From positions 1 to 58,094 of the IMG/VR virus record IMGVR_UViG_3300027842_000016: a stretch of 58,094 nucleotides of DNA; one strand, 5' to 3'. Both the position numbers and the translations under genes were made by a program. This document shows, piece by piece, positions 1,123-51,472 of the stretch. Source of the stretch: a virus. Position 1 is the first letter of the stretch; every line of letters begins with the position of its first letter. The notes under the pieces were generated by a model. It saw only the letters and a list, made by a program, of their open reading frames with translations, was not told where the DNA came from and did not search any database.

Positions 1123-1899
1123 ATGACAAACCAACTCAAGATACTATGCCTCGACATCGAGAATTTCCCCTGCCTGGTTTATAGCTGGGAGCTGGGAGAG
1201 GTTCGCTTGCCGCTCGACTTCCTGAAACGCGACTGGACCATTTGTGCATGGGCCGCCAAGTGGATGGACAATGACAAGATTTTCTACATGGACAACCGTG
1301 GTAGAAGGAACGTCTACAATGACAAGAAACTCGTAAAAGGCCTGATTAAGCTCATCAACCAGGCGGATGTGGTTATCGGTCAGAACATCAACCACTTCGA
1401 CCTGCGAAAGGTGGCCGCCAGGGCTACGTTCCACAAAATGAAACCGTTTAAGCCAGTGAAGGTGATTGACATCCTCACTGAGGAGCGGCGCGTGTTCGCA
1501 TTCACGTCGCACAAGCTCGCCTACAAGACCCGGATGAACAAGAACTACCAGAAGCTCGACCACAAGGAGTTCCCCGGCTTCGATCTGTGGGAAGGTTGTA
1601 TGGAGAACAAGCTTTCGGCCTGGAAAGCGATGGCTGAATACTGCATCCATGACGTTCTGTCCACTGCCGAGCACTACAACGACATCAAGGGCTGGATCAG
1701 GACGCCACATGCCACCGTGGCCGATGGAAAGACACGCTGCAAGTGCGGAAGCACGAATCTGAAGCCAAAAGGCTTTGCCAGGACCGATGCCGGTAAGTTC
1801 CAGATTTACCAATGCCGAGACTGCGGAAAATGGCCCAGGAGTCCAATAAATCTCTTGACAAAAGGACAAAAATCTGTTAGACTAAGGGAGGCCCAATGA
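1123..1899 (+). CDS. DEDDy 3'-5' exonuclease with C-terminal zinc ribbon
   Basis: 258 residues. RNase H-fold exonuclease motifs are in order: Exo I LCLDIEN (Asp11, Glu13), Exo II GQNINHFD (Asp93) and Exo III YCIHD (Tyr173, Asp177). This is the proofreading-type DEDDy set without a polymerase domain. A C-terminal zinc ribbon follows (Cys206-x-Cys208 and Cys231-x2-Cys234), probably for nucleic-acid binding. It would trim 3' ends of DNA or RNA. It lies between polA and the RNA ligase. The last 45 bases of the gene contain a promoter for the downstream genes. Confidence 0.85.
   Translation: MTNQLKILCLDIENFPCLVYSWELGEVRLPLDFLKRDWTICAWAAKWMDNDKIFYMDNRGRRNVYNDKKLVKGLIKLINQADVVIGQNINHFDLRKVAARATFHKMKPFKPVKVIDILTEERRVFAFTSHKLAYKTRMNKNYQKLDHKEFPGFDLWEGCMENKLSAWKAMAEYCIHDVLSTAEHYNDIKGWIRTPHATVADGKTRCKCGSTNLKPKGFARTDAGKFQIYQCRDCGKWPRSPINLLTKGQKSVRLREAQ
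1855..1883 (+). promoter_or_regulatory. sigma70-type promoter driving the RNA-repair block
   Basis: TTGACA at 1855-1860 and TAGACT at 1878-1883 are separated by exactly 17 bases, and TG one base before the -10 gives an extended -10. The same -10 and spacing occur at 41147 and 44791. Transcription would start near 1890, only a few bases before the RNA ligase ATG at 1896, so the mRNA would have almost no leader. It lies inside the 3' end of the exonuclease gene. Confidence 0.8.
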
Positions 1900-2918
1900 G
1901 GTTGCATAGTTACCCTTCGATTTACTCGTTTGGACATCGAGTAGTGAAGGACATCTTAAAAGACCCGGTGTACGTCCAGGAGAAAGTCGATGGTTCACAG
2001 TTCTCATTCGGCCTCGATGAAGAAGGAAACGTCATTACTCGCTCGAAGGGGGCTGACATCTATGCAGAGACTGCCGACAAGCTGTTCAAAGCAGCCGTGG
2101 AGTACGTTCATTCGATCAAGGATAAACTCACCCCAGGGTATACGTATCGTGGTGAGGTGCTTTGTCGTCCTCGACATAACACTCTTGCTTATGATCGCGT
2201 ACCGCGTCATAATGTCGTGATTTTTGACGTGAACACGGGCGAGGAATGCTACATGCCTTACTCGGAAGTGGTACAGGAAGCCGCCCGGCTCGACCTTGAG
2301 GTAGTTCCTCTGCTTCACGCCGGGATAGTCAGCTCTGTGGAGCAGTTTCAAGAGATTCTTAAGACCATGAGCTTCCTAGGTGGCCAGAAGATTGAGGGAG
2401 TGGTGGTGAAGCCTATCGGATACAATCAGTTCGGGATCGACAAGAAGGCGCTCATGGCTAAGTACGTTTCCGAGGAGTTTAAGGAGGTTCATGGTGGGAA
2501 CTGGAAGCAAAGCAATCCGTCGAACAACGAGGTCGTCGAGAAGGTGGCTCTCTTATACAAAACTCCTGCGCGATGGAACAAGGCTATACAGCATCTTCGT
2601 GAGGCTGGACAGATCGAGGACTCCCCGCGAGACATCGGCAAAATACTCGCGGAAATCCAAAAGGACACTCTTAAAGAGTGTGAAAATGAGATTAAAGAGG
2701 AGCTATTTAAGGCCGCTTGGCCGAAAATTGGAAGAATCCTTATTGCGGGATTTCCAGAGTGGTATAAAGAGCAGCTTCTGAAGAAGCAATTCGAGGAGAC
2801 GCCATGCGAGAACCAAGACAACGCTGCACCAAGTGCAAGCGACCAACAAGCCCAGCCCACACAGTCAATGGAGAGTGTCGGCGCTGCCGGAGGCCAAAAT
2901 GAAAGTAATATTTCTTGA
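1896..2918 (+). CDS. RNA ligase, Rnl2-like nucleotidyltransferase
   Basis: 340 residues. The covalent nucleotidyltransferase core is visible: motif I EKVDGS with Lys30 as the predicted AMP-accepting lysine, YRGEVL around residue 105 (motif III region), IEGVVVKP near 195 (motif IV) and KALMAKYV near 210 (motif V). This order matches ATP-dependent RNA ligases of the T4 Rnl2/DRB0094 type, which seal 3'-OH/5'-phosphate RNA nicks. The C-terminal 130 residues are helical and end in a low-complexity Gln/Ser/Ala tail. The start overlaps the exonuclease stop. GGGAGG lies five bases upstream and the promoter at 1855 immediately before it. The HAD gene that follows suggests an end-healing partner. Confidence 0.9.
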   Translation: MRLHSYPSIYSFGHRVVKDILKDPVYVQEKVDGSQFSFGLDEEGNVITRSKGADIYAETADKLFKAAVEYVHSIKDKLTPGYTYRGEVLCRPRHNTLAYDRVPRHNVVIFDVNTGEECYMPYSEVVQEAARLDLEVVPLLHAGIVSSVEQFQEILKTMSFLGGQKIEGVVVKPIGYNQFGIDKKALMAKYVSEEFKEVHGGNWKQSNPSNNEVVEKVALLYKTPARWNKAIQHLREAGQIEDSPRDIGKILAEIQKDTLKECENEIKEELFKAAWPKIGRILIAGFPEWYKEQLLKKQFEETPCENQDNAAPSASDQQAQPTQSMESVGAAGGQNESNIS

Positions 2919-3390
2919 CTTTGACGGAGTGCTCAATTCGGAAGCCAGTGTCCGATGCGAGCAGAGACGCAAGAGCCAGCGAATCCAGGACATGCTGTCC
3001 CCCATCGCTTGCTCGAACTTGCAGTACATCCTTGAGCAGGACTCAAGCATCCGCTTGATCATCTCCTCTACGTGGAGGGCACTGCACACGAAGGTTGAGA
3101 TGCAGAACATCCTCAACAACTACGGCGTGGAGGCGGCCCGCATCATTGGCTACACGCCGCGCACGATGAGCGGCGACCGGGCGCACGAGATCAACCTCTC
3201 TCTTGAGGAGTGGCCCAACATCACCAAGTTCGTGATCCTGGATGACGACCCGGACGTGCTGAACGTGAAGGACCCTCGCGGCCATGTGTTCATGACCGAC
3301 TCACAGGATGGGTTGCTGCTTAAACAGGCTCGACAGATCATAAAGCTGTTCAAGGAGGTAGCCGATGTCGGACAAAGTGGAAGTAAATAG
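2899..3390 (+). CDS. HAD-superfamily phosphatase (RNA-repair type)
   Basis: 163 residues. The start at 2899 has GGAGG five bases upstream. HAD motif I is FLDFDGVLN (Asp7, Asp9), motif II ISSTW, and the acidic motif IV LDDDPDVLN. The architecture and neighbour match the HAD domain found beside or fused to RNA ligases in predicted RNA-repair systems, where it is thought to remove 3'- or 2'-phosphates before ligation. It overlaps the ligase gene by 20 bases, so the two are translationally coupled. The substrate is inferred from context and family. Confidence 0.88.
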   Translation: MKVIFLDFDGVLNSEASVRCEQRRKSQRIQDMLSPIACSNLQYILEQDSSIRLIISSTWRALHTKVEMQNILNNYGVEAARIIGYTPRTMSGDRAHEINLSLEEWPNITKFVILDDDPDVLNVKDPRGHVFMTDSQDGLLLKQARQIIKLFKEVADVGQSGSK

Positions 3391-9713: not shown

Positions 9714-9952
9714 GCGAACCGATTGACGTTCTTTATGACAGAGATGACCAGATGTACCCGGACTATCACTTACAGGTTGTAAGGGCCAAGGTGGGTGCTC
9801 ATCTGACCGTGAGCTACAAAGGAAAGCCGTTCTATGAGACAGAAGTCCCACTGTCCTATGGTGCTCCCTTTGGGCCGGACGTGTGCGACATCCAGGACTG
9901 GGGCATGATCGCTTGTGAGGTCACGGACAAGCACAGAGCAGACCATGCTTGA
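9710..9952 (+). CDS. hypothetical protein, 80 aa
   Basis: ATGA overlap with the 402-aa gene. An acidic, beta-rich small protein (LQVVRAKVGAHLTVSYKGKP). No family recognised. It overlaps the macro-domain start by 8 bases. Confidence 0.6.
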   Translation: MSEPIDVLYDRDDQMYPDYHLQVVRAKVGAHLTVSYKGKPFYETEVPLSYGAPFGPDVCDIQDWGMIACEVTDKHRADHA

Positions 9953-10379
9953 CATCAAAGCTGATCTTTGGAGTACCCCAGCCACAGGCATCTGCATAAC
10001 GACCAATGGATATGTAAAGCCCAATGGCCGCGCAGTCATGGGCCGTGGCTGTGCCTTGGAAGCCAAGCAAAGGATTCCAGACATTGATAAGACCCTGGGC
10101 CATGTCATCAAGATGTTTGGAAACCATGTGCATCCACTTCGAGTCATCGAGAACAAGGTGATCTACAGTTTTCCTGTGAAACACAACTGGTGGGAGAAGG
10201 CTGACATCGAATTGATTAAGCGGTCCTGCCTTGAGCTTAAGCAGTTTGCAGACGGGCCTGGTCATAAACTGGTTCTGTTGCCTCGACCTGGCTGTGGAAA
10301 TGGCCACCTGAGATGGGAGGACGTTAAGCCAGAGATTGAAAAACTTCTTCCTTTAAACGTGGCGGTGATCTCTAAATGA
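9945..10379 (+). CDS. macro-domain (ADP-ribose-binding) protein
   Basis: 144 residues, essentially one macro domain. An N-terminal strand-helix with ITTNGYV precedes the GRAVMGRGCALEAKQ loop, which contacts the distal ribose. The C-terminal block LLPRPGCGNGHLRWEDVKP is the diagnostic PG-CGNG-L-W-V-P signature of single-domain macro proteins. These bind or hydrolyse ADP-ribose, ADP-ribose-1''-phosphate or ADP-ribosyl adducts. Two roles fit here: processing RNA-repair by-products, or removing ADP-ribose added by host defences such as DarT-type toxins. The start is the ATG at 9945. Only a weak ribosome site is visible and coupling to the previous gene is likely. Confidence 0.88.
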   Translation: MLDIKADLWSTPATGICITTNGYVKPNGRAVMGRGCALEAKQRIPDIDKTLGHVIKMFGNHVHPLRVIENKVIYSFPVKHNWWEKADIELIKRSCLELKQFADGPGHKLVLLPRPGCGNGHLRWEDVKPEIEKLLPLNVAVISK

Positions 10380-32673: not shown

Positions 32674-33618
32674 TTATCCGTTGCTGGTCCCGATGACTTC
32701 GACGGCCCGGTTGGAGTCTAAGATCGGATATACCGCATAGCACTTCCACCCGATTGAACCGTTCAAGTTCAGGGGGTCGGCCACACCGCTATCTCCCGGT
32801 TGGTGGACGATTTTCTGAATCCCTTGGTTGGCAACATCGACAGCACCAAAGGCTTCTTTTCCGAACACCCAGCTGTGATACGTCACGGCAGACATCGCCC
32901 CGACGCCAGTGAAGATGTTCTGCGATTCTTGGAAGCGGATGTTGGACATCTTTCCAAGCTCGCCAGCTAGAGCCATTTCATGCACCCGCTCAATGCTGAT
33001 GTACTTGTTCAGCTCGATCCAGCTGGTAGCGTTGCTATCAGACTGCAAGTCGAACGAAGTATGAGGGGACACGATCCCGTGGTAGCAACCATCCTCGAAA
33101 GGAAGGACTGCCAACGAGCGCAGGAACGCTGACGCCCGGCGGAAGTCAACCGCGAGCGCAGGGGTGTTCACAGCGCCTTCGGTCATTGCACCGCCTGTAT
33201 ACTGGATCGTCATATTGCCGGTGAGGGCGTTACGAGCGATGGTATCCAGGGACAGTCCGGCCTGATAGCCAAGCACATCGTGGATGGCTTCAGTGATGTT
33301 GTCATACGCTTCCAGCATAAGCCGGTCAGAGTAAGCAACATACGCTCCGTATTGCACGGGCGTCGCCAAGATTTTCGTGGACTGCCAGACTTGGCCGTTC
33401 GGGTTTACACCTTCGCCTAGAGGCGTGGTGACCGCTGCCTGGTTCACAGGGCGGAGGAACTGAATTTGCGTACCAGACTGCCGAGGCAGGGTCCGCTTTT
33501 CAGCGTTCTCTTGGAAGAACAAAGAGAACATGAGACGGGTCAAGAGCTTGCGATCATAGAAGATCGCGGAAGCGTCATTCAGACCCGACGTGGAAGTAAG
33601 GTTCGTGTTAAGAGCCAT
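32674..33618 (-). CDS. major capsid protein, N4-gp56 family
   Basis: 314 residues from ATG 33618, preceded by AAAGGTG. A GTG three codons earlier is rejected. Family hallmarks: AIFYDRKLLTRLMFSLFFQE, LPRQSGTQIQFLRPVN, LGEGVNP, PVQYGAYVAYSDRLMLEAYD and LGYQAGLSLDTIARNAL. This is an HK97-fold shell protein. It sits downstream of the scaffold-like gene, with a long RNA-gene-containing leader in between, unusual for the most highly expressed structural gene. Confidence 0.9.
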   Translation of the reverse strand: MALNTNLTSTSGLNDASAIFYDRKLLTRLMFSLFFQENAEKRTLPRQSGTQIQFLRPVNQAAVTTPLGEGVNPNGQVWQSTKILATPVQYGAYVAYSDRLMLEAYDNITEAIHDVLGYQAGLSLDTIARNALTGNMTIQYTGGAMTEGAVNTPALAVDFRRASAFLRSLAVLPFEDGCYHGIVSPHTSFDLQSDSNATSWIELNKYISIERVHEMALAGELGKMSNIRFQESQNIFTGVGAMSAVTYHSWVFGKEAFGAVDVANQGIQKIVHQPGDSGVADPLNLNGSIGWKCYAVYPILDSNRAVEVIGTSNG

Positions 33619-33852
33619 ATCTTTCACCTTTCATTTACGAAATACGCGGGAGCGCAAAATCTCCTTATGCACGTTTGTACAAGCTCCAAGGTCCTGGCCG
33701 TCCAAGCCGCCAGCGCATCAATCCTATGTGGGGCGTCCGCGAAGGACGCTTGTCCGTTAGTAATGGACACATGCCTTATCTCGTACAAACGAGGGGCTTT
33801 GCTTGTTACCAATCATCTTGTCCAATTAAGGGGCCTGTTTGGTAACTTTATA
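33619..33852 (-). promoter_or_regulatory. structured leader of the capsid gene
   Basis: 234 bases between the tRNA-Met end and the capsid ATG. Inverted repeats: 33805-33812 with 33839-33846 (8 bp), 33672-33680 with 33783-33791 (9 bp), and 33733-33738 with 33744-33749 (6 bp, 5-base loop). A 62-codon TTG-initiated frame (33624-33812) also spans it, but no ribosome site supports it. The stems suggest a structured 5' untranslated region controlling capsid expression or RNA processing after tRNA release. Confidence 0.5.
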
Positions 33853-33928
33853 TGGTTGCTCGCCTGGGAATCGAACCCAGCCCTCTAGCTTATGAGACTA
33901 GAATGATCATCCAGATCACTTGCGTGCG
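33853..33928 (-). tRNA. tRNA-Met-like (CAU), initiator-like C1-A72
   Basis: 76 bases including encoded CCA. The cloverleaf is complete: D stem GTGA/TCAT with GG in the loop, anticodon stem CTAGT/GCTAG, loop CTCATAA giving anticodon CAU, 4-base variable loop, T arm CTGGG-TTCGATT-CCCAG. The acceptor stem has two mismatches, C1-A72 and A4-A69. C1-A72 is the bacterial initiator hallmark, but the three G-C pairs of the initiator anticodon stem are absent. It may be an elongator Met, an Ile2 (if the C is modified) or a decaying gene. Confidence 0.75.
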
Positions 33929-33937
33929 AAATTGGAA

Positions 33938-34159
33938 CCCAGGGTCTATGTAACAAAAACTTCAACTTTTTATTACAGGAAGCGTCGCCTGGGTAACTTT
34001 ATGTTATCACGATAACGCCTTTCGGCGTAAAGCGGATGCTCTGCCAACTGAGCTACTCCCCCGATGGAGGAGGCCGGACTCGAACCGGCGACCTATCTGC
34101 TAAAATTGTGCCCAGGGGGCCTTGTGAGTATCCCGATTTTACGGGCAGCTGACCCTGGG
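33938..34159 (-). ncRNA. permuted tRNA-like structured RNA
   Basis: On the - strand the 3' half of a tRNA (34065-34100: anticodon-stem 3' strand GCAGA, TAGGTC, T arm GCCGG-TTCGAGT-CCGGC, acceptor CTCCTCC, A) comes before the 5' half (34062-34032: acceptor GGGGGAG, TA, D arm GCTC-AGTTGGCA-GAGC, A, TCCGC). The acceptor strands pair over 7 bp and are joined by a loop ATC. Further pairing joins the flanks: 34101-34107 with 33995-34001 and 34111-34116 with 33988-33993. A perfect 9-bp stem (33938-33946 with 34151-34159) encloses everything. Two hairpins (GAAA tetraloop; GTTATC/GATAAC) sit where the anticodon loop would open. Confidence 0.7.
33949..33977 (-). other. 11-bp hairpin inside the permuted-tRNA region
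   Basis: TGTAACAAAAA (33949-33959) pairs with TTTTTATTACA (33967-33977) across a 7-base loop, with one G-U-type pair in RNA. It lies just inside the outer 9-bp stem of the structured RNA. No T tract follows, so it is probably part of that RNA rather than a terminator. Confidence 0.6.
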
Positions 34160-34169
34160 GCTTTGGTGA

Positions 34170-35186
34170 TTATCTTTGCTGAGCGTCCGGGTGATTCTGA
34201 AGCCACTCGCGCTGTTGCGCCAGTGTCATCTTCCTGAACGCGGCCAGGCCGTCTGTCGGCATACGGCCCGCGCCTTTCCCGGCGCTTGCCACAGTTCCGC
34301 CAGCTGCTTCGGCACGAAGGGCTGCTTGCGCTTCTTTCATCGCATCTTCCCTTGCGGCTTTGGCAATGGCCTCTTTCTCCTTGGCCAGCATTTCGGCCAG
34401 GATTTCCTTCATCTCTGATTCTTTGTAGACCTTCTCTCCGCTCGGTTCGGGAGCCGGGGCCGGTGCAGCCTTGGGATTCTCTTGGAGAGCCAACTCATAA
34501 AGCTGGTCCAAGACCTCGGCAGCCGGTTTGGTGAAGTCCACGCGGGGGTCGCCGTTGCCGGTCGCGCCCGTTGCCAGCTTCACGATGGAAGGATAAAGGC
34601 GCTTCCATTCCGGGTAGTTCTCGGCGTCGTTCTCGCGCCGCGTCCTCTCGATGAAGATGTCCTTCGCCTTGTTCTCGGCGGCAAGGGCTTCCAACTGTTC
34701 CTGGTGCTCTTGGGTCATCGCTTCCCGCTCGCTCTCCACAAATTTCTGAAGGGCTTCGGGGTTCTTCGCCAACTCTTTGTAGTCGATTGGCGTCTTTGAG
34801 AGGCTTGCTAAAAGCTTGTACGTCTTTTCCTGCGCTTCTTTGATCTCGGCCATTTCCTTTCGGAGCTTGGCGTTTTCCTGAGAGGTGCGGACGTTCCACT
34901 TTCTCAGCTCTTCCGGGTCGTTGGCTTCTTTCTTGCTCTTGGGAAGGAACTTCCCAGTGGCCGGGTCTTTCTCGACCTTGCCTTTCTCTGGATCGTCAGC
35001 GGGCTTCTTGTCCGCAGCTGCCTTCTCTTCAGCCGCCTTTTTGTCGGCCTCAGCCTTGTCAGCAGCGGCCTTCGCTTCCGCTTCCTTCGGATCGGGCTGT
35101 GCAACTTCCTCTTGCTTCTTCTCAAGGGCCTCAGCTCGTTGAGCGATTGAAGCCGGGTTTACTGTTGATTCGCTTGCGTGTCCCAT
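34170..35186 (-). CDS. scaffolding-like protein, 338 aa
   Basis: Highly charged and helical: a Lys/Ala/Glu/Asp-rich first half (AKAAADKAEADKKAAEEKAA), a central coiled coil (WNVRTSQENAKLRKEMAEIK) and a Gln-rich C-terminal tail (RKMTLAQQREWLQNHPDAQQ). The length, composition and position directly before the capsid gene are those of capsid scaffolds. A small perfect hairpin (35214-35228) lies in its leader. No protease domain seen. Confidence 0.72.
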   Translation of the reverse strand: MGHASESTVNPASIAQRAEALEKKQEEVAQPDPKEAEAKAAADKAEADKKAAEEKAAADKKPADDPEKGKVEKDPATGKFLPKSKKEANDPEELRKWNVRTSQENAKLRKEMAEIKEAQEKTYKLLASLSKTPIDYKELAKNPEALQKFVESEREAMTQEHQEQLEALAAENKAKDIFIERTRRENDAENYPEWKRLYPSIVKLATGATGNGDPRVDFTKPAAEVLDQLYELALQENPKAAPAPAPEPSGEKVYKESEMKEILAEMLAKEKEAIAKAAREDAMKEAQAALRAEAAGGTVASAGKGAGRMPTDGLAAFRKMTLAQQREWLQNHPDAQQR

Positions 35187-47380: not shown

Positions 47381-48565
47381 ATGCCCATTTCGACAATCAT
47401 CGAAACGAGCGGCGTGCCGGTCAAGGTCTGGTCGAAACAGATCGAGGTCGAGGCCCAGCAGCAGCTTGAAAACGTAGCGAGATTACCGTTTGTTTTTAAG
47501 CATGTGGCTGTCATGCCTGACGTGCACGCCGGGCGCGGCGCGACCATCGGCTCGGTCGTGGCGACCAAGGGCGCTATTTGTCCGGCGTCAGTCGGCGTTG
47601 ACATCGGGTGCGGGATGATGGCCGTCAAGCTCAGTCTCAGTGCGGAGAATAAAGCCCTATTGCACGCAAAACTTGCGGAGATTAGGCACAGCATCGAGCG
47701 ATCAATCCCTGTGGGATTCGAGAGCAACCGCAACCTCACCACACAAGTTGAGGCTTGGGCGGGATGGACGGCGATAGGAAAGCCAGAGATCGGAAGCAAT
47801 GACACGAAGCGAGCGATGTCACAGATGGGCTCGCTCGGCGGTGGCAACCATTTTATTGAGGTCTGTCTGGACACGGAAGGCGAAGTGTGGGTGATGCTTC
47901 ACTCCGGCTCACGGAACATCGGAAAGGTCCTGGCCGAGAAGCACATCGACAAGGCCAAGGGCCTGATGAAACAGATGTTCATCAATCTACCAGACCCGGA
48001 CCTTGCATACTTTGCTCAAGGAACTCCTGAGTTCAGCGCATACGTGAATGATGTGCGCTGGGCCCAGGATTATGCCATGAGCAACCGCCATGAGATGATG
48101 CGTCGTATCCTCAAGGACCTCGGCTACTTCTTCAATGGCGGCGAACCTCTTGTGCCGGTCGTGTCAGTCAACTGTCACCACAATTACTTGGAGTGGGAGC
48201 ATCACTATGGCGAAAACGTTATCGTCACTCGTAAGGGCGCTGTCCGAGCCAGAGAAGGGGATATGGGAATTATCCCCGGCTCGATGGGAACACGAAGTTT
48301 CATTGTTCGGGGTAAGGGTAACCCCGAATCGTTCAATTCCTGCTCACATGGCGCTGGTAGAAGGATGTCGCGGACAAAAGCACGTCATCAATTTACAGTC
48401 GATGACTTGCGGCAGCAAACTGATGGGGTTGAATGTCGAAAGGATGCAGCTATCATCGACGAGATTCCAGCAGCTTATAAGGACATTGGCGAGGTTATGG
48501 AAAATCAAAGTGACCTCGTTGAAGTAGTGGCTGAGCTGAAACAAATCTTGTGCGTGAAAGGATAA
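47381..48565 (+). CDS. rtcB: RtcB RNA ligase
   Basis: 394 residues, close to the usual size. RtcB metal and catalytic residues are in order: PDVHAGRGATIG, GVDIGCG (Asp74, Cys77), GGGNHFIEV (Asn156, His157), HSGSRNIGK (His174), NCHHNYLE (His266) and FNSCSHGAGR (His323, the predicted guanylated His). RtcB joins 2',3'-cyclic-phosphate (or 3'-phosphate) RNA to 5'-OH RNA with GTP and Mn2+, repairing tRNAs cut by anticodon nucleases or splicing. No RtcA or archease gene is adjacent. It complements the Rnl2-like ligase at 1896, which needs opposite end chemistry. Confidence 0.97.
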   Translation: MPISTIIETSGVPVKVWSKQIEVEAQQQLENVARLPFVFKHVAVMPDVHAGRGATIGSVVATKGAICPASVGVDIGCGMMAVKLSLSAENKALLHAKLAEIRHSIERSIPVGFESNRNLTTQVEAWAGWTAIGKPEIGSNDTKRAMSQMGSLGGGNHFIEVCLDTEGEVWVMLHSGSRNIGKVLAEKHIDKAKGLMKQMFINLPDPDLAYFAQGTPEFSAYVNDVRWAQDYAMSNRHEMMRRILKDLGYFFNGGEPLVPVVSVNCHHNYLEWEHHYGENVIVTRKGAVRAREGDMGIIPGSMGTRSFIVRGKGNPESFNSCSHGAGRRMSRTKARHQFTVDDLRQQTDGVECRKDAAIIDEIPAAYKDIGEVMENQSDLVEVVAELKQILCVKG

Positions 48566-50254: not shown

Positions 50255-50915
50255 AGAAGTAGTCAGCAAAGGAATTCGCATCCCCTCGGTCACCCAGGTC
50301 ATCGGGTGTCTCGACAAGCCCGCGCTATATGCCTGGTACGGCAAGTACGGGAACGAGGAATGCAACAGGATCAAGCAAGAGAGCGCCGACTTCGGGACGG
50401 CGGTCCATGAACACATCGACCAGTACATCACGGGCCAGGAGCCCCATCCTGTGGAGTACAAGGAAGGCGTGAACGTGGAGATGGTCAAGCTGTGCTTCAC
50501 TAACTTCAAGGAATGGTATGATCATTCTGGAATGGAGGTCGTCAGTGCTGAGCCTAAGACAGCAGTTATTAGCAAGCGGTATAATTTCCAAGGTACTTGG
50601 GACTTCATCGGTAAAAGGAAAGACTGGAACGGCCTCTGGCTCCCTGCCGACTGGAAAACGTCGAACCAAATCTACGACACGGTTGGTATACAGCTCGCGG
50701 CTTACGCGCACCTCTACGGCGAGAACGAGGGACTCTCGGACGAAGAGATTTTTAAGAAATTTCGGGATGGGTTGGGAGTGAGGATTGACAAAAAGACGGC
50801 GAAGGTCTATGAGAAGCCGTTCACAGGCCTCGGCTTCTACTTCGAGGTGTTCAAGCACTTGCTGCATGTGTACCAGTTCCACACGAGGACTGGGGCCTGG
50901 GACGCGGGGGAATGA
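50244..50915 (+). CDS. PD-(D/E)XK exonuclease (RecB/Cas4-like)
   Basis: 223 residues. FGTAVHEHIDQ (helix with Glu/His), GTWDFIGKR (Asp), LPADWKTSN (Asp-x-Lys) and IQLAAYAHLYG (Gln-x3-Tyr) are the ordered signature of RecB-family phage exonucleases. It probably processes DNA ends for recombination or replication. Confidence 0.88.
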   Translation: MPHKEVVSKGIRIPSVTQVIGCLDKPALYAWYGKYGNEECNRIKQESADFGTAVHEHIDQYITGQEPHPVEYKEGVNVEMVKLCFTNFKEWYDHSGMEVVSAEPKTAVISKRYNFQGTWDFIGKRKDWNGLWLPADWKTSNQIYDTVGIQLAAYAHLYGENEGLSDEEIFKKFRDGLGVRIDKKTAKVYEKPFTGLGFYFEVFKHLLHVYQFHTRTGAWDAGE

Positions 50916-51472
50916 TGGACATCCAATCAGACTACAACATGGTGATGGTGGACCTCGAAACCATGAGCACGCGCCGGGATGCGGCCATCATATCCATCGG
51001 GGCCGTCAAGTTCTGGACCAATGTCAAACAGGACGAGTTTACCAATGATCAGCTGTTCTATCAGACGGTATCGCTCAAGTCCTGTGAGAAGGTCGGGCTG
51101 CACATCGACGCCAACACTGTGGAGTGGTGGCTTCAGCAGAGTAAAGAGGCGCAGTCGGCACTCTTTGATAACCGGCGCAAGGACCTGCACAGTGCGCTCT
51201 ATGCGTTCGCCAACTGGTTCCCAAAGGCCGCGTACCTGTTCGGCAATGGGGCCACGTTCGACAACATAATCCTCCGCAACGCCTTCGAGGCTTGTGGGGT
51301 TCAGTACCCAGTCTCGTATCGGAACGACATGTGCTACAGGACCTTGGCGCGTATGTCAGATGTCGTCGTGGAAAAGACAGAGGGTGTGAAGCACAACGCC
51401 TTGGATGACGCCATCCGTCAGACCAAGCATCTCATGGCAATTTTGGAGAAAACTCCGTGGCACGGAAAATAG
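50912..51472 (+). CDS. DEDDh 3'-5' exonuclease
   Basis: 186 residues. VMVDLETMS (Exo I), LFGNGATFDNIILRN (Exo II) and HNALDDAIRQ (Exo III with His) match DEDDh exonucleases of the T4 DexA/Rv2179c type. It would degrade 3' ends of DNA or RNA. Coupled by ATGA to the RecB-like gene. Confidence 0.88.
   Translation: MMDIQSDYNMVMVDLETMSTRRDAAIISIGAVKFWTNVKQDEFTNDQLFYQTVSLKSCEKVGLHIDANTVEWWLQQSKEAQSALFDNRRKDLHSALYAFANWFPKAAYLFGNGATFDNIILRNAFEACGVQYPVSYRNDMCYRTLARMSDVVVEKTEGVKHNALDDAIRQTKHLMAILEKTPWHGK

What the first reader, a model, noticed from the sequence alone, without database searches (positions are those of the whole stretch)
33938..34159. Permuted tRNA with closed acceptor stem inside a long structured RNA
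On the - strand the T-arm/acceptor half (34065-34100) comes before the acceptor/D-arm half (34032-34062). The two acceptor strands pair over 7 bp (one G-U) with only ATC between them. The anticodon strands pair 4 of 5 (one C-A mismatch). Flanks pair too: 7 bp plus 6 bp next to the anticodon stem, and a perfect 9-bp outer stem. No normal-order partner exists for either half nearby. If joined at the anticodon side the loop could read UAC (Val), but the join is unknown. Permuted tRNA genes are known from some algae and archaea; whether phages use this arrangement is open. Alternatives are the remains of a tandem tRNA duplication or a tRNA-like structural RNA.
Basis: partly seen in the sequence, partly recalled or inferred. 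Interest (0 to 1): 0.93.

Follow-up and report, generated by a model that had tools for sequence, protein, structure and literature searches.

The report
Y-RNA-like tRNA mimic in phage
This stretch of a phage genome encodes a conserved RNA folded like a transfer RNA, with its two halves in swapped order and its amino-acid end sealed into a loop; it is the tRNA-like part of a known bacterial RNA type (Y RNA), without the stem that normally holds Y RNA's protein partner, so it is most likely a tRNA look-alike and not a new way of encoding a working tRNA.

Summary
On the minus strand a T-arm half (34066-34100) precedes a D-arm half (34032-34062), and the acceptor stem is closed by ATC. No ordinary tRNA explains it. 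Seven related contigs carry the unit before the major capsid gene, with compensatory changes in anticodon, T and acceptor stems.

This is the layout of the tRNA-like domain of bacterial Y RNAs (YrlA, Rfam RF02553: 37.7 bits, model 27-81), a known tRNA mimic. A model built here from 26 phage Y RNAs scores other phage and bacterial Y RNAs 80-119 bits over full length. It scores the window family 50-56 bits over the tRNA-like module only. The Ro60/Rsr-binding stem is missing, and no TROVE gene was found. So it works like a YrlA module but fails two Y-RNA criteria: a new variant of a known kind.

A permuted tRNA-Lys joined by the phage's RtcB and RNA ligase remains a minority reading.

Side result: a second class with an ACAGCAA motif accompanies DUF2828 proteins, which are predicted to share the Ro60 fold.

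The parts
34111..34159 (-). leader hairpin (CCCAGGG...CCCTGGG); a local CC(A/G)GG...CC(T/C)GG hairpin stands here in most relatives
34101..34110 (-). CACAATTTTA, invariant in all family members, directly before the anticodon 3' strand
   Evidence: alignment A1
34096..34100 (-). anticodon-stem 3' strand GCAGA (39-43)
   Evidence: pairs 42-43 with 27-28 by compensatory change
34073..34095 (-). variable region TAGGTC and T arm
   Evidence: RF02553 and R1 matches
34066..34072 (-). acceptor stem, 3' strand CTCCTCC
   Evidence: compensatory changes, e.g. GAGTCAG/CTGACTC in L132
34063..34065 (-). closing loop ATC of the acceptor stem (TTCG or CTT in relatives)
34056..34062 (-). acceptor stem, 5' strand GGGGGAG
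34038..34055 (-). TA and D arm (GCTC-AGTTGGCA-GAGC)
34029..34037 (-). position 26, anticodon-stem 5' strand TCCGC and TTT; GCTTT is invariant and abuts tRNA-Met in five relatives
33937..33994 (-). second leader hairpin (ACCCAGG...CCTGGGT), directly 5' of tRNA-Met; extra insert shared in kind only with L131
33853..33928 (-). tRNA-Met with C1.A72 mismatch (initiator-like)
   Evidence: ARAGORN, sequence
47381..48565 (+). RtcB RNA ligase (context, possible partner)
   Evidence: PF01139, E 9.9e-129
1896..2918 (+). ATP-dependent RNA ligase (context)
   Evidence: PF09414, E 5.8e-17
2833..3390 (+). HAD domain of Swiss-Army-Knife RNA-repair proteins (context)
   Evidence: PF18143, E 3.2e-24

Best explanation
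The element is a tRNA mimic of the bacterial Y RNA (YrlA) type, reduced to its tRNA-like module: T arm, capped acceptor stem and D arm in permuted order, held at the base by the outer pairs of an anticodon stem, without the Ro60/Rsr-binding stem. It is not a decoding tRNA. Shown: fold, permuted order, conservation with compensatory changes, match to the YrlA tRNA-like domain, absence of the Y stem, absence of a TROVE or DUF2828 gene in the window record. Inferred: it folds into a tRNA-like elbow and is recognised by proteins that bind or process tRNA. Most likely working mode (inferred): RNase P cuts the late transcript at the 5' end of the adjacent tRNA-Met. In five relatives this puts the tRNA-like module at the very 3' end of the scaffold-gene mRNA, where it would shield that end or tether an exoribonuclease such as PNPase, as the YrlA module does. 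The capsid-gene mRNA would start behind the tRNA with its own conserved leader. I put about 0.3 on that specific mode and 0.75 on 'tRNA mimic, not a joined tRNA'.
For: RF02553 YrlA is the best Rfam match, exactly over T arm, capped stem and D arm, at 37.7 bits; TROVE-carrying phage Y RNAs score 30-54 bits with the same model. Phage Y-RNA model R1, whose covariation is strong (205 two-sided cells against 62 shuffled), matches all 7 family members only over positions 51-111 at 50-56 bits; held-out phage and bacterial Y RNAs match over 1-147, the best of them at 80-119 bits. Pairs 27:43 and 28:42 covary. Acceptor loops are short or tetraloops, as in phage and bacterial Y RNAs. No TROVE in the window, L126, L129 or L132 records. 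D half abuts tRNA-Met C1 in L127-L130 and L132. That YrlA consists of a 5'/3' stem plus a tRNA-like domain binding PNPase: PMC8394870.
Against: No RNA data. The module lacks the feature that names the family (Rsr stem), so an independent origin from a tRNA gene is possible. The phage encodes RtcB and an ATP-dependent RNA ligase, which could join halves. The invariant GCTTT and AATTTTAGCA read naturally as the two sides of a Lys(UUU) anticodon loop. The mRNA-3'-end role is untested, and the window and L131 have an insert between the module and tRNA-Met.
Confidence: 0.62

Rival explanations
1. It is a permuted tRNA-Lys(UUU) gene: the two halves are joined at the anticodon loop by the phage's RtcB or ATP-dependent ligase, and the capped acceptor is opened by RNase P and RNase Z.
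For: Phage encodes RtcB, PF09414 ligase and a HAD RNA-repair protein; L129 has RtcB and ligase, L132 ligase. GCTTT and TTTTAGCA are invariant and could give loop CUUUUAG. tRNA elements of both arms are kept.
Against: 29:41 mismatch in 6 of 6; that loop needs position 26 to be missing; base after the acceptor stem varies A/U/C; acceptor sequence varies strongly with an A.C mismatch in L127/L128; no conserved splice structure; DNA beyond GCTTT is not conserved between lineages.
Confidence: 0.15
2. It is a complete Y RNA acting with a host-encoded Rsr: in the window the flanking 9-bp and 6+7-bp stems form the basal stem.
For: Window long-range fold favoured by 7 kcal/mol; TROVE proteins and Y RNAs are common in bacteria.
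Against: R1 finds no Y stem; five relatives have no downstream strand at all; local hairpins explain the same bases.
Confidence: 0.1
3. Decayed remnant of a tandem tRNA array (3' half of one tRNA next to 5' half of another).
For: The module sits in a tRNA neighbourhood and L137 lacks it, so it can be gained or lost as a block.
Against: Acceptor strands of the two halves covary (GAGTCAG/CTGACTC against GGGGGAG/CTCCTCC) and so do 27:43 and 28:42; a remnant would not.
Confidence: 0.05
4. The invariant GGCACAATTTTAGC is mainly a DNA element, a sigma-54-like -24/-12 promoter (GG-N10-GC), and the RNA fold is secondary.
For: Spacing GG-N10-GC is exact in all family members and in L137 (TGGCACGATTTTAGCA), by reading; the Salmonella rsr-yrlBA-rtcBA operon is controlled through RtcR (PMC7790460), an RpoN-dependent activator (PMC9879122).
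Against: The motif breaks in related loci L142 and L143; a start 12 nt downstream would lie inside the T arm.
Confidence: 0.06

Closest known systems
YrlA, bacterial Y RNA (Rfam RF02553), tRNA-like domain
   Same: T arm, capped acceptor-like stem and D arm in the same permuted order; base pairs to an anticodon-stem remnant; found in phages
   Different: No Rsr-binding basal stem, no TROVE gene in the phage, sits in the late operon before tRNA-Met
DUF2828-associated permuted and interrupted tRNA-like RNAs (ACAGCAA class, found here)
   Same: Permuted tRNA with capped acceptor in a phage without TROVE
   Different: ACAGCAA motif and DUF2828 gene are absent from the window
Permuted tRNA genes of algae and archaea
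   Same: 3' half precedes 5' half with a short spacer
   Different: No complete anticodon arm on joining, no splice structure, no CCA or fixed base after the acceptor stem
Two-piece (permuted) tmRNA, RF04321
   Same: Permuted acceptor and T arm
   Different: Complete D arm present, no tag reading frame or pseudoknots; 22 bits against a cut-off of 47
Salmonella rsr-yrlBA-rtcBA RNA repair operon
   Same: tRNA-mimic RNA and RtcB in one genome
   Different: No rsr found, rtcA not looked for, and the genes are far apart in the window

Membership tests
Bacterial Y RNA (YrlA) | tRNA-like domain: T arm, capped stem, D arm in permuted order | tested here: met
   RF02553 positions 27-81; R1 positions 51-111, 53.4 bits
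Bacterial Y RNA (YrlA) | basal Ro60/Rsr-binding stem (in phages GGUGNAG..GG-UUACUUC with CC..UGUUC) | tested here: not met
   R1 matches full length in held-out Y RNAs but never beyond 51-111 in 7 family members; filters off on the window gives the same
Bacterial Y RNA (YrlA) | TROVE/Rsr gene in the same genome | tested here: not met
   0 in window, L126, L129, L132 records; 20 of 20 class-1 phage records have it. A host copy cannot be excluded
Bacterial Y RNA (YrlA) | score above Rfam gathering cut-off | tested here: not met
   37.7 against 69 bits; TROVE-phage Y RNAs also fall short at 30-54 bits, so this is weak evidence
Bacterial Y RNA (YrlA) | binds Rsr or PNPase | not testable with these tools
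   needs pull-down
DUF2828-associated RNA (ACAGCAA class) | ACAGCAA motif and DUF2828 gene | tested here: not met
   motif absent by reading; PF11443 absent from window and L126, L129, L132
Permuted tRNA gene | 3' half before 5' half with pairing acceptor strands | tested here: met
Permuted tRNA gene | joined halves give a standard anticodon arm | tested here: inconclusive
   29:41 mismatch in 6 of 6; only a register without position 26 gives loop CUUUUAG
Permuted tRNA gene | circular intermediate and mature tRNA | not testable with these tools
   needs RNA sequencing
Two-piece tmRNA | tag reading frame and tmRNA core | tested here: not met
   RF04321 22.2 against 47 bits, only the acceptor/T arm matched
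Permuted group I intron-exon | group I core in the flanks | tested here: not met
   no intron family in Rfam scans

The most novel reading that the evidence does not exclude
A phage tRNA-Lys(UUU) gene encoded in permuted order and capped, made functional only by phage RNA-repair ligases (RtcB or the ATP-dependent ligase). The phage would thus own a lysine tRNA that is born in two anticodon halves, possibly linked to anticodon-nuclease defences that cut tRNA-Lys. It would be the first permuted tRNA gene shown to be joined in a phage.
Probability: 0.12. Interest if true: 0.88.

Novelty: new variant of a known kind. Interest (0 to 1): 0.5.

Why it matters
It turns an apparent exotic gene into a testable member of the tRNA-mimic world of Y RNAs, and suggests that the tRNA-like module can be kept by phages without its Ro60-binding stem. 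It separates the two jobs of Y RNA, Ro tethering and tRNA mimicry, in a natural example. The search also showed that permuted tRNA-like genes are common in phages and bacteria but missed by tRNA finders and by the Rfam cut-off, and that a DUF2828 protein family, predicted to share the Ro60 fold, travels with its own permuted or interrupted tRNA-like RNAs. That makes the question of why Ro-type proteins work with tRNA mimics open to comparative tests in isolated phages such as Sinorhizobium phiM12.

Tried and rejected
Permuted group I or other small self-splicing intron: I first read the flank motifs UUACUUC and ACAGCAA as new tRNA introns, because 41 of 58 UUACUUC-type elements give perfect anticodon arms after joining at 28/29. 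The neighbouring TROVE gene (20 of 20 phage records) showed that the UUACUUC class is Y RNA. Splicing of these RNAs is not excluded, but nothing here requires it.

RtcB as general partner: only 3 of 40 UUACUUC and other permuted-tRNA phages carry it.

UAC (Val) anticodon: rejected by relatives.

Two-piece tmRNA: 22 bits, wrong anatomy.

Tandem tRNA remnant: rejected by covariation.

The MAFFT acceptor columns for L127/L128 are shifted by one, so pairs were counted on hand-aligned stems.

A Pfam scan of two truncated TROVE fragments gave nothing; a profile search against solved structures identified them.

Literature searches for phage permuted tRNAs found nothing; the Y RNA link was found only after the genomic neighbourhood pointed to it.

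Full report
What is there. The minus strand between the scaffold gene (ORF 34170-35186) and the major capsid gene (32674-33627) carries a T-arm half followed by a D-arm half whose acceptor strands pair over seven bases around the loop ATC. ARAGORN finds only an ordinary tRNA-Met at 33853-33928 and a tRNA-His elsewhere. The fold is more stable than shuffles (z -3.6).

Relatives. A scan with the capsid protein gave 30 loci. Seven contigs carry the unit at the same place (L126-L132), and a DNA pattern scan found it only in those contigs, plus two unlike elements in L276 and L283. Six distinct sequences show two-sided changes that keep pairs 27:43 (T-A, G-C), 28:42 (C-G, T-A), three T-stem pairs and three acceptor pairs, while 29:41 is C.A or A.A in all six. 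Because these sequences are few and related, the permutation control is only suggestive for the anticodon and acceptor stems (fractions of permutations reaching the observed value: 0.033 anticodon, 0.003 T stem, 0.167 acceptor). CACAATTTTAGCA and GCTTT are invariant. The loop closing the acceptor is ATC, TTCG or CTT.

Flanks. In L127-L130 and L132 the sequence GCTTT runs directly into the first base of tRNA-Met, so there is no downstream strand for the long outer stems. L137 lacks the module and has the same kind of leader hairpin followed by tRNA-Met. In the window the outer stems compete with two local hairpins, each followed by an A/T-rich spacer and a tRNA or tRNA-like unit; the long-range fold wins by 7 kcal/mol in prediction. 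I therefore treat the long stems as unproven.

What it matches. In permissive mode Rfam's best match is RF02553 YrlA over model positions 27-81, exactly the T arm, capped stem and D arm. YrlA is described as a stem made from the 5' and 3' ends plus a tRNA-like domain; the stem binds Rsr, the tRNA-like domain binds PNPase (PMC8394870). YrlA in several phages is mentioned in PMC7765460, and TROVE proteins with a tRNA-like partner in jumbo phages in PMC7824862.

How I got there. A custom scan found 129 non-redundant permuted units in 270 loci. That family is Ro60/Rsr by profile search against solved structures (2nvo 3.9e-35, 9l5y 3.5e-76). All 20 phage records tested with this RNA class carry TROVE, while the window and its relatives carry none. 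So the common class is Y RNA.

Discriminating test. From 26 phage Y RNAs I built model R1 with strong covariation (205 two-sided cells against 62 in shuffles; eight-pair stem with up to six pair types). Held-out phage and bacterial Y RNAs score 80-119 bits over the whole model. All seven window-family sequences score 50-56 bits over positions 51-111 only. The Rsr stem and the intact anticodon hairpin of Y RNAs are absent. Rfam's own model does not separate the two groups, since TROVE phages also score 30-54 bits and often only over the tRNA-like part.

Gene context. The window phage encodes RtcB, a PF09414 RNA ligase and a HAD Swiss-Army-Knife protein. L129's contig has RtcB and the ligase, L132's has the ligase. 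These could act on RNA ends made during infection, or could join the two halves. Contigs may be incomplete, so absences are weak.

Mechanism. Best supported: a tRNA-shaped, non-decoding module. The position suggests that RNase P processing of tRNA-Met leaves the module at the 3' end of the scaffold mRNA in five relatives. Shielding that end, or tethering PNPase as YrlA does, is the simplest role; this step is inference. The joined tRNA-Lys(UUU) reading remains possible because both sides of the break carry U-rich anticodon-loop-like sequence, but the mismatch, the varying acceptor and following base, and the lack of a conserved join argue against it.

Side result. TROVE is present in 1 of 28 of these records. 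The commonest neighbour is DUF2828, in 39 of 87 loci, and PF11443 is present in 22 of 26 records (three of these below the curated cut-off) plus phiM12, L069, L076 and the L283 contig, but in none of nine Y-RNA phages. DUF2828 aligns with TROVE over 411 columns (hhalign 98.3%, E 1.3e-14), and its AlphaFold model (pLDDT 82) has six Ro60/Rsr/TROVE structures as its top six PDB matches, at TM-scores of about 0.4-0.55. No held paper names DUF2828 together with TROVE. The window belongs to neither class by motif or partner.

Limits. No RNA data; contigs of unknown completeness; key Y RNA papers (Chen 2014, Wang 2018) are not held, so their content is cited through reviews; whether the host has Rsr is unknown.

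Noticed in passing
L410-L526 (loci), e.g. L486:862-2418, L513, L493: A large class of phage tRNA-like RNAs with an ACAGCAA motif, either permuted or ordinary-order with a roughly 35-60 nt insert at 28/29 of the anticodon stem, travels with DUF2828 proteins, which are predicted to have the Ro60 fold. Apparently undescribed pairing.
   Followed up: partly
L110, L155, L174, L257 and 54 other phage loci: Phage Y RNAs keep an intact anticodon hairpin: joining at 28/29 gives perfect 5-bp arms in 41 of 58, 39 of them with U33 and a purine at 37, with many anticodons (Asn, Ser, Thr, Lys, Pro and others). Whether they are ever joined into working tRNAs is open.
   Followed up: partly
L018, L065, L154, L245, L249, L250, L265: Ordinary-order tRNA genes with the Y stem inserted in the anticodon stem, the circular permutation of YrlA; L065's contig carries TROVE.
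   Followed up: partly
L287-L405 (bacterial chromosomes: Streptomyces, Chryseobacterium, Bradyrhizobium, Paenibacillus and others): Y RNAs next to TROVE genes are widespread; phage ones fall below Rfam's RF02553 cut-off, so annotation probably misses many.
   Followed up: partly
window 33628-33852 (-) and the leaders of relatives' capsid genes (A5): The capsid-gene leader has repeated CCCC...GGA(C/U)AAG units conserved in 15 related phages; possibly repeated protein-binding sites with GGA motifs.
   Followed up: partly
window 1896-3390, 9915-10379, 47381-48565, 50912-51472 (+): RNA-repair-like gene set: RNA ligase, HAD_SAK_2, weak Macro domain, RtcB, Rv2179c-like exoribonuclease.
   Followed up: partly
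L143 about 2540-2690: A different structured-looking insert lies between two copies of CCAGCACAATTT at the slot before tRNA-Met, as if the slot takes different RNA modules.
   Followed up: no
Mycobacterium phages Phabba (L284) and Myrna (L286), Synechococcus phage S-CRM01 (L285), Sinorhizobium phage phiM12 (L121): Isolated phages for bench work: unannotated tRNA-like elements in Phabba, S-CRM01 and phiM12; TROVE in Phabba and Myrna, DUF2828 in phiM12. In S-CRM01 neither TROVE nor DUF2828 was found.
   Followed up: partly
L283:325-458: A permuted tRNA-Lys-like unit (GC-ATTTTAA-GCCGT) flanked by GGATCC repeats and a CAGCATACTATTT flank, in a 259-kb contig that has DUF2828.
   Followed up: partly
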